Origin: Methylomonas sp.
Lineage (GTDB): Bacteria; Pseudomonadota; Gammaproteobacteria; Methylococcales; Methylomonadaceae
Assembly: GCA_002928965.1 (NCBI GenBank)
Contig: PERU01000014.1
Coordinates: 1-64,000, forward strand
Length of the DNA: 64,000 nt
Reading direction: 5' to 3'
The position numbers and the translations under genes are program-made. This document shows positions 42,351 to 55,632 of the stretch, piece by piece; the stretch's first letter is position 1; every line of letters starts with the position of its first letter. The notes under the pieces are model-generated. The model worked only from the letters and a program-made list of their open reading frames with translations, had not been told where the DNA came from and ran no database searches.

Positions 42351-42920
42351 TTATGCCAAAACGTTTGCTTTTCTGCGTCCCGTAACAATCATGCCCAGTA
42401 AAGCACTACCCATAAACCAAACAGCGGAGGGTAAAGGCACTATGGCCGGCAGATCATCTGATACTACTGAGGGGCTGATATCAAAGCCGTATAAAAAATG
42501 CGAGTTTTCGAACGCTCCGCCATCGCTGAAAATCAACATGTTGGCATCTGAACCCAAATTGACGTTACCTACTTCAGAACTCCAGTTACCTTGGGATAGG
42601 AAACCAATTTGAAAATTGTTGGAACCTAGCAAAGTACCTGATGCTGCCGCATGGCTGATCGTGTAATTTGAACCGCTTTGGACAAAGGCAATTTCACCTA
42701 TGCCGTTAAAGGTCAAAACCGGTGCTGCGATACTGAGATCGGCTGTGTCTTCAAAAATACCGAAAGTATCGTTAAAGGAAGGAAACGCAAATCCTAATGG
42801 ATTGATTGATATTAAATTGATGTCGCCATCATTCGGTGCCCAAACACCAGCAGAACTGGCAGTCGAGATAGCAAACAGGGAAACGCCCAATACTTGTTTT
42901 AATGATGTATTTATTTTCAT
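42351..42920 (-). CDS. PEP-CTERM-like secreted protein (VPLPSAVWFMGS tail)
   Basis: This is an exported 189-residue protein of unknown function. The signal peptide spans about 1-24 (cleavage near ASSAG). The middle is a Gly/Asn/Ser-rich beta-type domain, and the C-terminus has VPLPSAVW, a hydrophobic helix (MGSALLGMIVTG) and basic RRKA residues. It is another candidate exosortase substrate with the same variant motif as 2297-2878. It has its own terminator and a palindrome (42983-43010) in its leader. Confidence 0.8.
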   Translation of the reverse strand: MKINTSLKQVLGVSLFAISTASSAGVWAPNDGDINLISINPLGFAFPSFNDTFGIFEDTADLSIAAPVLTFNGIGEIAFVQSGSNYTISHAAASGTLLGSNNFQIGFLSQGNWSSEVGNVNLGSDANMLIFSDGGAFENSHFLYGFDISPSVVSDDLPAIVPLPSAVWFMGSALLGMIVTGRRKANVLA

Positions 42921-43320: not shown

Positions 43321-43929
43321 TTATGGTGCCACGCCGTAAAATTGATTGAGACCTTCACGTTGTAAATCCCAGCTATCGGAACTATCCGGCCAATGTTTTT
43401 TGTCAAACCCTGGTGCTGTTTTTAAGGTGGTTTTATCCATGTTGAGAGCATAATTGCGCCGGTCGACCGACCAGTGCAGCGCTTGCCAGGGGATGGCGAA
43501 CAACTTGTTGCCCATGCCCATGGCGCCGCCGAAAGTTACTACGGCATACACAACCTGACCATTATCCGGGTTTAACACTAGGTCTTTGATTTCCCCGAGT
43601 TTGTCGCCATTGGGGTTTTTAACGGCAGTGCCAATAATTTTGCTGGCTCGGCTCACTTGCTGCATTAATTGATTGGATTTTTGCTCACTTTCGCTAGCCT
43701 GCTTTTCATCGACTTGTATCAACTCATTGGGGTTTTCTGTTGCATAAGCGGCATTCAGACAGGCAATGCTCATGATCGTGGCAATTTTTAATCCGGCCTT
43801 ATTTGTTACGGGTATTTGTTTTGGACTGAGCTTGTTGAAGACCAGGGCGGAACCCCCTTCGACACGCTCAGTACCCACATGGGCAGTATTTAAAGGCCGG
43901 GTTAATTTTAGGATAGGTGTGGTTTTCAT
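43321..43929 (-). CDS. Exported PRC-barrel protein with repeat-derived leader
   Basis: This 202-residue protein has a PRC-barrel domain (about 95-175): GTAVKNPNGDKLGEIKDLV, VVYAVVTFGG and LFAIPWQALHW are typical. The PGFDKKHWP tail is shared with the proteins at 55072 and 59835. The hydrophobic signal core (AGLKIATIMSIACLNAAYA) starts only at about residue 43. The residues before it (TERVEGGS...FNKLSPKQIPVTNK) are a translated dispersed repeat also found in the 44454 gene. PRC-barrel proteins of this type are common in stress islands; their ligand is unknown. Function as a periplasmic protein is inferred. Confidence 0.8.
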   Translation of the reverse strand: MKTTPILKLTRPLNTAHVGTERVEGGSALVFNKLSPKQIPVTNKAGLKIATIMSIACLNAAYATENPNELIQVDEKQASESEQKSNQLMQQVSRASKIIGTAVKNPNGDKLGEIKDLVLNPDNGQVVYAVVTFGGAMGMGNKLFAIPWQALHWSVDRRNYALNMDKTTLKTAPGFDKKHWPDSSDSWDLQREGLNQFYGVAP

Positions 43930-44243
43930 AGTGTTCTCCGTTGGACTTGTCAGTAGAGCCCAACATGATGTGTAGTTTGATCGGTAGGTTCACTTTATCT
44001 AAATCCGCGGGCGCTGTCGGTTCGTTAGCAAACATAGATTTTCCTAGCTCGGTCCTCCACCGACAGGGTTGTTATCGAATCGCTTCTGGTATGGATAAGG
44101 CAGATCGCTCGCTCATTTATCTAGCTTTTAATCTATGTGCGCTGCCGTACCGACCCGGCGATGCAGAGTGCGTATGGTTCTAATCTGGCGTTGAAATAGC
44201 TTCCACGCTGTATTTGAAATCCAATAATTTCGGGAGATAGGTT
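43930..44243. promoter_or_regulatory. Divergent regulatory gap with a conserved partial palindrome
   Basis: This 314-base gap separates the PRC-barrel gene (minus) and the CsbD gene (plus). The stretch 44010-44036, GGCGCTGTCGGTTCGTTAGC and onward, matches the reverse complement of 54945-54973, in front of another PRC-barrel gene, at nearly every base, and resembles 47475-47496. No other gene is seen. Confidence 0.5.
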
Positions 44244-44420
44244 ATGAATAAAGATCAAGTGAAAGGTCGCGTTGAAGAAGCCAAAGGCAAAATCAAAGAA
44301 GTAGCCGGCAAAATACTGGACGACGAAACTATGGAAGTGGAAGGCACTCTGCAAAAAAATGTTGGTAAAGCGCAGGCGGGATTTGGCAATCTCAAAGAAG
44401 ACATTAAGAGCACTAAATAG
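44244..44420 (+). CDS. CsbD family stress protein
   Basis: This is a 58-residue hydrophilic helical protein. It starts MNKDQVKGRVEEAKGKIKEV and continues with AGKI, EVEGTLQKNVGKAQ and LKEDIKS, the diagnostic CsbD pattern. Family members are induced by general or osmotic stress through alternative sigma factors, and their molecular function is unknown. A ribosome site (CGGGAG) is 9 bases ahead of the ATG. It is too short for standard ORF cut-offs but clearly real. Confidence 0.9.
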   Translation: MNKDQVKGRVEEAKGKIKEVAGKILDDETMEVEGTLQKNVGKAQAGFGNLKEDIKSTK

Positions 44421-44453
44421 ACACGTGTTGTCCCATACTAACTGACGGAACTG

Positions 44454-44903
44454 ATGATGAAACCAAATACCATAAAACTATTAATCCTGCCCTTTAATAC
44501 CGCTCGCCCTCATACCCGTTTAGGTAAAGAGCCTGTCGAAGGGTCTGCAATCGGCTTTGACAAACGCAGTCATAACGGTAAGACACTGACAAATAAGCTC
44601 GGGTTAATCAATAGCCTATGGGCTGCAGTCGCTCTATCCCTGGTTTCCCTGGGTGCGTTTGCCGCAGACAGCCACATGACACAATCGATCAAACATGCAG
44701 AAGCCGCTGTTAAAGCATCCGATGCCAAGGCAATAACCGAGCATGCAGAAACGGCTAAAAGCCATGTGGTAATCAGTGAAGAGCATTTAAAAGCCAGTGT
44801 GACCAGCCTGGATTTGGCAATCGAGCATGGCAAACAAGGGCACGCTGATTTAGCCAAAAAAGCCGCAGAAGAGGCGGTAACGCACCTGAAAGCGGCGCAA
44901 TAA
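44454..44903 (+). CDS. SmbP-like small metal-binding periplasmic protein with repeat-derived leader
   Basis: This is a 149-residue exported protein. The mature part (from ADSHMTQSIKHAE, about 73) is all helix, with histidines spaced as in the small metal-binding protein SmbP of Nitrosomonas (HAE, EHAET, SHVV, EEHLK, EHGKQGHA, HLKAAQ). It is likely to bind Cu, Ni or other divalent metals. The signal core (LWAAVALSLVSLGAFA) begins at about residue 55. The preceding leader GKEPVEGSAIGFDKRSHNG...LTNKLG is homologous to the leader of the 43321-43929 gene. Either ATG of the ATGATG at 44454 may be used. Confidence 0.75.
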   Translation: MMKPNTIKLLILPFNTARPHTRLGKEPVEGSAIGFDKRSHNGKTLTNKLGLINSLWAAVALSLVSLGAFAADSHMTQSIKHAEAAVKASDAKAITEHAETAKSHVVISEEHLKASVTSLDLAIEHGKQGHADLAKKAAEEAVTHLKAAQ

Positions 44904-45351
44904 AAAACCAGTAAAGCTTGCGTGCTGGCCTAAAAAACCAGCACTCAGTGGGTTCGACGCCGGCTATTAACCCGGTCTTAGGATAACCTGTCCGCCTATA
45001 TGCCCCTTTGAGTAAAAGCCCGGCTAAGGATATGAGCGACAATAATTTCCCTGTTTCGGCTGATAAGGATCTTCCCGTCCGTCCTGAACCTCTCGAGGTA
45101 TGGACTCGGAAATACCGGCGCTCGCCGCGCCAACCCGATCATGCTTCGACTTTGCTCTGCACGAACGGGTTGACGGGAACAGTTGTTCGGGACGTTATTT
45201 TTGACGAAGTCCTAAGGACATGACAAACGGGCCTCGACAAGTTCAGCCATAACGGCATACCAATTAAAAATAAGGCCGTGTTAATAGTTCACTACACGCG
45301 TCTTCCTGTCCTCATCGCCATCCATTTGGCGAGCGTATTCGGAGCAAACAC
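44904..45351. other. Gap with a decayed third copy of the leader repeat
   Basis: An ORF of 63-71 codons (45008/45032-45223) exists but has no ribosome site or family match. At 45240-45345 one frame reads LDKFSHNGIPIKNKAVLI and then a signal-peptide-like hydrophobic run ending ASVFGANT. This matches the leaders of the 43321 and 44454 genes, but it has no start and ends in a stop shortly after. Confidence 0.5.
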
Positions 45352-55071: not shown

Positions 55072-55632
55072 ATGAAAACAATAACGTCCATCCTGACAGT
55101 GTCATTGCTGAGTGCTGTGTTTGTCGGCCCAGCCTTCGCTGACGATGTAAAAGAGAAAACACAAGACCTTCTGGAAAAACAAGAAGAACTCAATACAAAA
55201 CAACAAGAGGTCAAAGAAAAGCAGATTGAACTCAATCAAGCCAATAAAGAAGTATCAATTGAACGTGCGCAGGAGGCCAATAAGTCCATGCAGCAGGTCA
55301 GTCGATCCAGCAAGATTACCGGCGCCAAAGTAAAAAATACCACGGGCGAAAATCTCGGTGACATCAAAGACTTGGTGATTGACCCTTCGAATGGTCAAGT
55401 AGTCTATGCAGTGGTTTCTTTCGGCGGTGTCATGGGCATGGGAAACAAGTTATTTGCCATTCCCTGGAGAGCGCTGCACTGGACAAGTCCCAAGGACTAT
55501 TACGTGCTTGATTTAGATAAAGACACCTTAAAAAATGCACCGGGGTTTGACAAAAAACATTGGCCAGCAAACTCAGAAAAATGGGAAGAACAACGCCAAG
55601 CATTGGGTCAGTTTTATCGCGTAACACCCTGA
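55072..55632 (+). CDS. Exported PRC-barrel protein with Gln/Lys-rich helix
   Basis: This is a 186-residue periplasmic protein. A clean signal peptide (about 1-23, cleavage after AFA) is followed by a charged helical stretch (KEKTQDLLEKQEELNTKQQE, about 27-65). The PRC-barrel domain (about 80-160) contains GAKVKNTTGENLGDIKDLV, VVYAVVSFGG, LFAIPWRALHW and PGFDKKHWP. It is closely related to the 43321-43929 product but has no repeat-derived leader, so it shows the ancestral N-terminus. Located 80 bases after a conserved palindromic motif. Confidence 0.85.
   Translation: MKTITSILTVSLLSAVFVGPAFADDVKEKTQDLLEKQEELNTKQQEVKEKQIELNQANKEVSIERAQEANKSMQQVSRSSKITGAKVKNTTGENLGDIKDLVIDPSNGQVVYAVVSFGGVMGMGNKLFAIPWRALHWTSPKDYYVLDLDKDTLKNAPGFDKKHWPANSEKWEEQRQALGQFYRVTP

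What the first reader, a model, noticed from the sequence alone, without database searches (positions are those of the whole stretch)
43766..45345. A repeat-derived leader peptide in front of signal peptides of unrelated proteins
The PRC-barrel protein (43321-43929) and the SmbP-like protein (44454-44903) share an N-terminal extension of about 40 residues with VEG...F(N/D)K(L/R)S...TNK(A/L)GL before their signal cores. A decayed third copy lies at 45240-45345. A related PRC-barrel protein at 55072 lacks it. A dispersed DNA repeat thus seems to be spreading as an export-leader module and would give unusually long signal-peptide N-regions.
Basis: partly seen in the sequence, partly recalled or inferred. 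Interest (0 to 1): 0.7.

Follow-up and report, generated by a model that had tools for sequence, protein, structure and literature searches.

The report
Jumping repeat lodged in signal peptides
A small transposon-derived DNA repeat in methane-eating bacteria can land in genes without breaking the reading frame, and most of the in-frame copies we found lengthen the start of exported proteins, probably because that stretch is cut off during export anyway.

Summary
The PRC-barrel and SmbP-like proteins carry the same ~40-residue insert between start codon and signal core; a decayed third copy follows. The insert is not a dedicated export leader. It is a copy of an IS630-type MITE: ends TTAACCCGGCC/GGCCGGGTTAA, TA next to the ends, consensus 112 or 130 bp, so +38 or +44 codons, open in one frame per orientation. 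A ~1.1 kb IS630-family transposon with matching ends sits in a related genome. The element occurs in 30 of 37 genomes of the genus Methylomonas.

Of 181 copies examined (not independent), 148 lie in no open gene frame. Twenty events in credible genes are in frame: 15 N-terminal, all before a signal peptide, lipobox or membrane segment; five internal (RecB, RecD, FecR, HemS, a TPR protein). A less systematic second set adds two N-terminal exported and four internal cytoplasmic cases. No in-frame N-terminal insertion in a cytoplasmic protein was met. Two empty sites show insertion between native start and signal core. Leaders evolve loosely in two gene families.

Best reading: signal-peptide n-regions are a safe harbour for in-frame MITEs. 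In-frame MITE fusions are known; our searches found no report of this bias.

The parts
43788..43905 (-). MITE copy 1, in frame in the PRC-barrel gene (118 bp between and including the terminal TTAA motifs; covariance-model match 43783-43910). Its flanks are not TA on either side, so the TA duplication is decayed here
43321..43929 (-). PRC-barrel protein gene, 202 aa; PRC domain at residues 92-151, after the leader
43741..43929 (-). Inferred 63-residue signal peptide of the PRC protein with the MITE-coded n-region (cleavage site after AYA judged by eye; no SignalP available)
44481..44607 (+). MITE copy 2, in frame in the SmbP-like gene (127 bp; covariance-model match 44476-44612); TA on the left, TC on the right
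44454..44903 (+). SmbP-like protein gene, 149 aa; SMBP domain at residues 53-147, after the leader
44454..44663 (+). Inferred 70-residue signal peptide of the SmbP-like protein with the MITE-coded n-region (cleavage after AFA judged by eye)
45177..45289 (+). Decayed third MITE copy, in no open gene frame
44962..45033 (+). Possible fourth, strongly decayed copy (weak match)

Best explanation
The 'leader' is a copy of an IS630-type MITE that inserted between the native start codon and the hydrophobic core of the signal peptide. Because the element with its TA duplication adds a multiple of three bases and is open in one frame per orientation, the ribosome reads from the native start through the element into the signal core. 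The precursor gets an n-region about 40 residues longer, which should be removed with the signal peptide, leaving the mature protein unchanged. The n-region thus acts as a safe harbour: in-frame insertions there survive, while most others in genes are purged. Shown here: element anatomy, matching ends of an IS630-family transposon, two empty sites, frame-preserving length, the N-terminal/export bias, loose sequence evolution in two families. Inferred: translation of the leader, its removal by signal peptidase, and selection as the cause of the bias.
For: Element anatomy and frames; IS630-family transposon with the same ends; empty sites in the cytochrome c gene (G052) and the lipoprotein gene (G045, G006) with the same native start; PRC and SmbP homologues with ordinary signal peptides; no start codon between element and signal core in SmbP; 15 of 20 in-frame events in the systematic set are N-terminal and all 15 are in exported or envelope-type proteins, 14 of 15 by a crude hydrophobicity measure against 35 of 81 background ORFs and 32 of 63 genes that merely start near a copy; TTAA sites in the first 15 codons of hydrophobic-N genes are only 12 of 280; leader pN/pS 0.40-0.84 against 0.06-0.10 in the mature lipoprotein, 0.46 against 0.08 in the EipA-like pair.
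Against: No proteomics or SignalP; starts and cleavage sites are inferred, and in six of the 15 N-terminal events a downstream start is possible or the start is unclear (L067, L089, L093, L125, L134, L100). Internal in-frame insertions also survive (nine events in all), so coding tolerance is not limited to n-regions. The FecR pair shows the opposite pN/pS order (0.17 in the element, 0.58 in the rest) on three changes in the element. The sample is ranked by score. The TTAA background was counted over the first 15 codons, while a few insertions lie further in (L067, L099).
Confidence: 0.78

Rival explanations
1. Selected export-leader module: the repeat peptide changes targeting or timing of export, as the long n-regions of autotransporters are thought to, and is kept or spread because it helps.
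For: All 17 N-terminal events of both sets are in exported or envelope-type proteins; leader pN/pS is below 1.
Against: The same element is in frame inside RecB, RecD, HypF, HemS, TatD and a DNA polymerase III alpha-type protein; forward and reverse insertions give two unrelated peptides, both found before signal cores; the peptide drifts much faster than the mature protein in both exported families compared.
Confidence: 0.08
2. The insertions are upstream of the true starts: translation begins downstream of the repeat and the long ORF is accidental.
For: Some copies are like that or may be: L213, L393/L394, perhaps PilX L093, OEP L100 and L371.
Against: SmbP has no standard start between repeat and signal core; the cytochrome c and lipoprotein genes have their native start upstream of the insertion by comparison with empty sites.
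Confidence: 0.06
3. Insertion bias: the transposase prefers AT-rich gene starts with K/L/I codons, so n-regions are simply hit more often.
For: Ends fit insertion at TA in TTAA-like sites; 19 of 280 TTAA sites of the background genes lie in the first 15 codons, somewhat more than their share of codons (1,215 of 29,082).
Against: The density is too small to give 15 of 20 (P about 4e-17 against 12 of 280; 9e-12 against an assumed 10%); N-termini of cytoplasmic proteins should then be hit as well and were not; genes near non-intragenic copies are not enriched for export (32 of 63).
Confidence: 0.07

Closest known systems
Rickettsia palindromic elements (RPE)
   Same: Short palindromic mobile repeats found in frame inside unrelated protein genes (passages of PMC2229807 and PMC10969869)
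   Different: Different host and sequence; described in many internal positions of enzymes; no n-region bias found in the passages read
ERIC/RU-1, YPAL/RU-2 and Correia MITEs with ORFs (Delihas)
   Same: MITE ORFs fused in frame to genes; [quoted passage not shown]
   Different: There the MITE's own hydrophobic residues help build a signal peptide; here it lengthens the n-region of existing signal peptides in many unrelated proteins
RUP of Streptococcus pneumoniae
   Same: MITE of similar size with TIR and TA termini, thought to be mobilised by an IS630 transposase (passages of PMC2229807)
   Different: Reported as intergenic
Long signal sequences of autotransporters
   Same: Exceptionally long N-terminal part in a Sec signal sequence (abstract of PMC2805444)
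   Different: A common domain organisation within one secretion class, not a transposable element in unrelated proteins

Membership tests
IS630-type MITE | Short, multicopy, with terminal inverted repeats and no transposase gene | tested here: met
   112/130 bp consensus without room for a transposase; ends TTAACCCGGCC/GGCCGGGTTAA; 32 places at E<=0.01 in the own genome, 30 of 37 genus genomes
IS630-type MITE | TA target-site duplication | tested here: met
   T and A next to the ends in 79-87% per base over 126 legible copies; comparison with two empty sites is compatible with TA insertion. Decayed in the two window copies
IS630-type MITE | Ends shared with an autonomous IS630-family transposon | tested here: met
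   L297 (PF13358, TA flanks): its two ends are identical to each other and to the MITE's left end over 20 bases; the MITE's right end shares the outer 13
IS630-type MITE | Mobilisation by that transposase | not testable with these tools
   Needs an experiment; the own genome has no PF13358 match at E<=0.001
Rickettsia palindromic element | Palindromic repeat in frame inside unrelated protein genes | tested here: met
   nine internal and 17 N-terminal in-frame events over both sets
Rickettsia palindromic element | Sequence homology to RPE families | not tested
   No RPE sequence was fetched; so it works like an RPE but is not filed as one
Dedicated export leader module | Confined to exported proteins, with a conserved peptide | tested here: not met
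   Also inside RecB, RecD, HypF, HemS, TatD; loose pN/pS in two families; two unrelated peptides by orientation

The most novel reading that the evidence does not exclude
Signal-peptide n-regions are a general landing pad through which mobile elements repeatedly extend exported proteins, and some of these MITE-made n-regions have been co-opted to tune targeting or timing of export, so that a transposon rewires secretion of unrelated envelope proteins.
Probability: 0.1. Interest if true: 0.8.

Novelty: new variant of a known kind. Interest (0 to 1): 0.55.

Why it matters
It shows where a genome can absorb in-frame transposon insertions at little cost: the part of a precursor that is thrown away. 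It predicts that natural signal peptides tolerate about 40 extra residues before the core, which bears on signal-peptide prediction, start-codon annotation of exported proteins and how new N-terminal sequence arises. With natural filled and empty alleles in related species it is directly testable.

Tried and rejected
RNA-structure role: the 5' part of the SmbP message with the element folds no better than shuffles (z=+1.6, 190 of 200 shuffles at least as good), so a conserved regulatory hairpin is not supported in this copy.

Insertion bias towards neighbourhoods of exported genes: not supported, since 32 of 63 genes that start within 200 bp of non-intragenic copies have a hydrophobic N-terminus by the same measure, against 43% of 81 background ORFs and 14 of 15 in-frame N-terminal cases (Fisher P=0.003 for 14/15 against 32/63). 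The 63 come from the 134 copies, not from those.

Spacing of the ends divisible by 3 in 15 of 15 copies flagged as intragenic (a list that includes the doubtful L111) against 55 of 111 others: not used as proof, because indels both change spacing and close frames.

Open-frame copies left out of the 20 events: L111, L207 and L400 (look spurious; L207 has no Pfam match; the other two were not scanned), the plus-strand frame of L075, L213 (a start lies downstream), and frames that mostly run out at a C-terminus: L071, L114, L221, L225, L050, L104, L106. Orthologous pairs L115/L190 and L183/L194 were counted once. L396 and L115 have no Pfam match and L099 only one below the cut-off; they were kept as credible lipoprotein or exported ORFs. 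From the second set, L371 (ambiguous start), L388 and L391 (C-terminal), L393/L394 (5' of the start) and L395 (stop inside) were left out.

Literature on this bias: searches listed no paper that states it; only listings were seen except for the passages cited. The library holds open papers only.

Full report
WHAT IS THERE. The PRC-barrel gene (43321-43929, minus) and the SmbP-like gene (44454-44903, plus) are ORFs with Pfam domains PRC (residues 92-151) and SMBP (residues 53-147), both after the shared leader. The leaders are encoded by homologous DNA. Aligned with another copy of the same genome (contig 46) and copies from related genomes, they form one element with ends TTAACCCGGCC...GGCCGGGTTAA and an inner palindrome around GAGCCTGTCGAAGG / CTTCGACAAGCTCAG. 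A covariance model of nine copies, these two included, scores them 119.8 and 121.4 bits, the decayed third copy 25.4 bits at 45177-45289 and a possible fourth 22.6 bits at 44962-45033. In the whole genome 32 places match at E<=0.01 when both strands of one place are merged.

WHAT THE ELEMENT IS. The genus is Methylomonas: contig lengths of G024, G041 and G045 equal those of M. fluvii EbB, M. koyamae R-45383 and M. methanica R-45363, and the 8 exact matches of a 28-base end pattern in named genomes lie in Methylomonas (7) and one Candidatus Methylobacter. The model matches in 30 of 37 genomes of the genus at E<=0.01, 692 strand-matches in the table, with at most 88 candidates scored per genome. 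In the 126 of 159 copies with both ends legible, T and A stand next to the ends in 79-87% per base, and a further T or A outside in 71%, which fits TA duplication in a TTAA target. Consensus lengths are 112 bp (30 copies) and 130 bp (21 copies of 125); with 2 bp of duplication that adds 38 or 44 codons. The consensus is open only in forward phase 0 (LLTRPLNTV...) and reverse phase 1 (FINPALF...). A ~1.1 kb transposon in G012 (L297: PF13358 match, 353-residue frame, TA flanks) has ends identical to each other and to the MITE's left end over 20 bases; the MITE's right end shares the outer 13. L295, L296 and L318 have similar ends. The window's own genome has no PF13358 match at E<=0.001. In the two window copies the TA flanks are wholly or partly decayed.

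EMPTY SITES. In G052 the orthologue of the own genome's cytochrome c protein (86% identical) reads MKNWLSGWSLLLLGFYHSPVWA from ATGAAAAACTGGTTAAGTGGATGG; the filled copy (L064/L275) has the same ATGAAAAAC, then the element, then the same signal core. A lipoprotein in G024, G048 and G049 has the element after a short start such as MSQANKFF where G045 and G006 have an uninterrupted MPQAHKFFKSR.LLLCCSLLL; G047 has at that site an insert with a different core. PRC homologues L251 and L240 and SmbP homologues such as L017, L018 and L020 have signal peptides of ordinary length. In SmbP no ATG, GTG or TTG lies between the upstream ATGATG and the end of the signal core.

WHERE THE COPIES LIE. The systematic set holds all 150 rows printed, the ten further loci L100-L109 of that call, and all 32 own places: 181 copies, examined (159) and, after my own check, (22). 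In 148 of 181 no frame open through the copy continues 70 or more residues on either side; in 33 one does. Of the 33, 16 copies (15 events) are N-terminal in credible genes: SmbP, PRC, a beta-barrel porin (L062), cytochrome c (L064), a phosphonate-binding type protein (L067), SCO1 (L075), an SLT_2 lipoprotein (L089), PilX (L093), an EipA-like protein (L099, below the Pfam cut-off), a lipoprotein without Pfam match (L115/L190), a DUF2341 protein (L125), an alginate-export porin (L134), two outer-membrane efflux lipoproteins (L212, L100) and a lipoprotein-like ORF without Pfam match with a partial copy (L396). Six copies (five events) are internal: RecB, RecD, FecR before its membrane segment in two species, HemS (L385), and a membrane-anchored TPR protein where the insert lies in a Pro/Ala-rich linker (L003). 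The other 11 are set aside as told under Tried and rejected. In nine of the 15 N-terminal events no plausible start lies downstream of the element, or a relative fixes the start (SmbP, PRC, L062, L064, L075, L099, L115, L212, L396); in L099 an ATG inside the element is absent from its orthologue L389, and L062 and L115 have possible starts inside the element. In six (L067, L089, L093, L125, L134, L100) the start is unclear.

SECOND SET. Profile searches with the two peptides over 237 genomes of the family (lists cut at the best rows), of which I followed only long open frames, added a YfiR-like protein with the insert before its signal core (L390) and internal insertions in a DNA polymerase III alpha-type protein (L386), HypF (L374), a DUF4912 protein (L340) and TatD (L392); HemS appeared there too. 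A periplasmic binding protein of the locus that also holds the HemS gene (L205/L218) was met by chance and checked: it has an insert in its n-region. L389 is the orthologue of L099. Both sets together: 17 N-terminal events, all in exported or envelope-type proteins, nine internal events, none at the N-terminus of a cytoplasmic protein. The second set was not collected systematically.

IS IT MORE THAN CHANCE. In 81 ORFs of at least 150 aa from the window, L046 and L227-L234, 43% have an 11-residue stretch of mean hydrophobicity 1.8 or more in the first 45 residues, and 12 of 280 TTAA sites lie in the first 15 codons of such genes. Against that rate 15 of 20 has P about 4e-17, against an assumed 10% about 9e-12. 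By the crude measure 14 of 15 N-terminal cases are hydrophobic (L134 is not, but matches a porin family), P=7e-5 against 43%; genes that merely start within 200 bp of a non-intragenic copy are so in 32 of 63 cases. Weak points: gene calls and starts are crude, some insertions lie beyond codon 15, and copies in sister species are related; orthologues were merged in the event counts but not in the 181.

SELECTION ON THE LEADER. In three lipoprotein pairs pN/pS of the leader is 0.50, 0.84 and 0.40, that of the mature part 0.06, 0.10 and 0.08. In the EipA-like pair dN/dS is 0.46 for the element, 1.43 for the native n-region, 0.42 for the signal-core stretch and 0.08 for the mature part. The FecR pair goes the other way (0.17 against 0.58) on three changes in the element. 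The frame is kept, including a 12-nt deletion in G048, while the peptide drifts. That fits a passenger in a translated but disposable stretch; weak constraint cannot be excluded with so few changes.

MECHANISM. The MITE lands on TTAA-like sites. In a gene it survives only if the frame is open and the product works. Between start codon and signal core an insert of about 40 residues becomes n-region and is expected to leave with the signal peptide, so such insertions stay while most others in genes are lost. Translation, cleavage and selection are inferred.

RELATION TO KNOWN THINGS. In-frame palindromic or MITE insertions are known from Rickettsia (RPE) and enterobacteria; [quoted passage not shown] a 2024 review names RPEs as the extreme case (passages of PMC10969869). 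RUP is thought to be IS630-mobilised. New here, as far as nine searches show, are this family, its frame-preserving anatomy and the strong bias to n-regions of existing signal peptides.

Noticed in passing
window 43783-45289; own genome C36:4287-5162; C46:2560-4103: Copies cluster: 4 neighbouring pairs within 1.5 kb among 32 own places, 0.36 expected at random (P=0.0005). Two are pairs of neighbouring genes each carrying an insert (SCO1 and cytochrome c; recB and recD). This could mean local hopping.
   Followed up: partly
L075 (C36:5041-5162), L259: Inserts with similar ends but another core, encoding SFPRRRESS or LESGLRGNDE; the core resembles the Neisseria dRS3 type repeat (likeness recalled, not tested).
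   Followed up: no
L205/L218, L385/L387, L206 (G005 and G041): A haem-uptake type locus carries several copies: an N-terminal insert in the binding protein with a further copy just upstream, an internal insert in HemS, and a copy near a TonB-receptor-like gene.
   Followed up: partly
window 42351-42920 (-): A 189-aa protein with signal peptide ends in VPLPSAVWFMGSALLGMIVTGRRK, which looks like a PEP-CTERM sorting signal (motif recalled, not tested).
   Followed up: no
L003:886-2064 (-), own genome C15: A TPR protein (MSLINQMLRDLEQRN...) with one N-terminal membrane segment carries a decayed copy in frame in a Pro/Ala-rich linker beyond that segment.
   Followed up: partly
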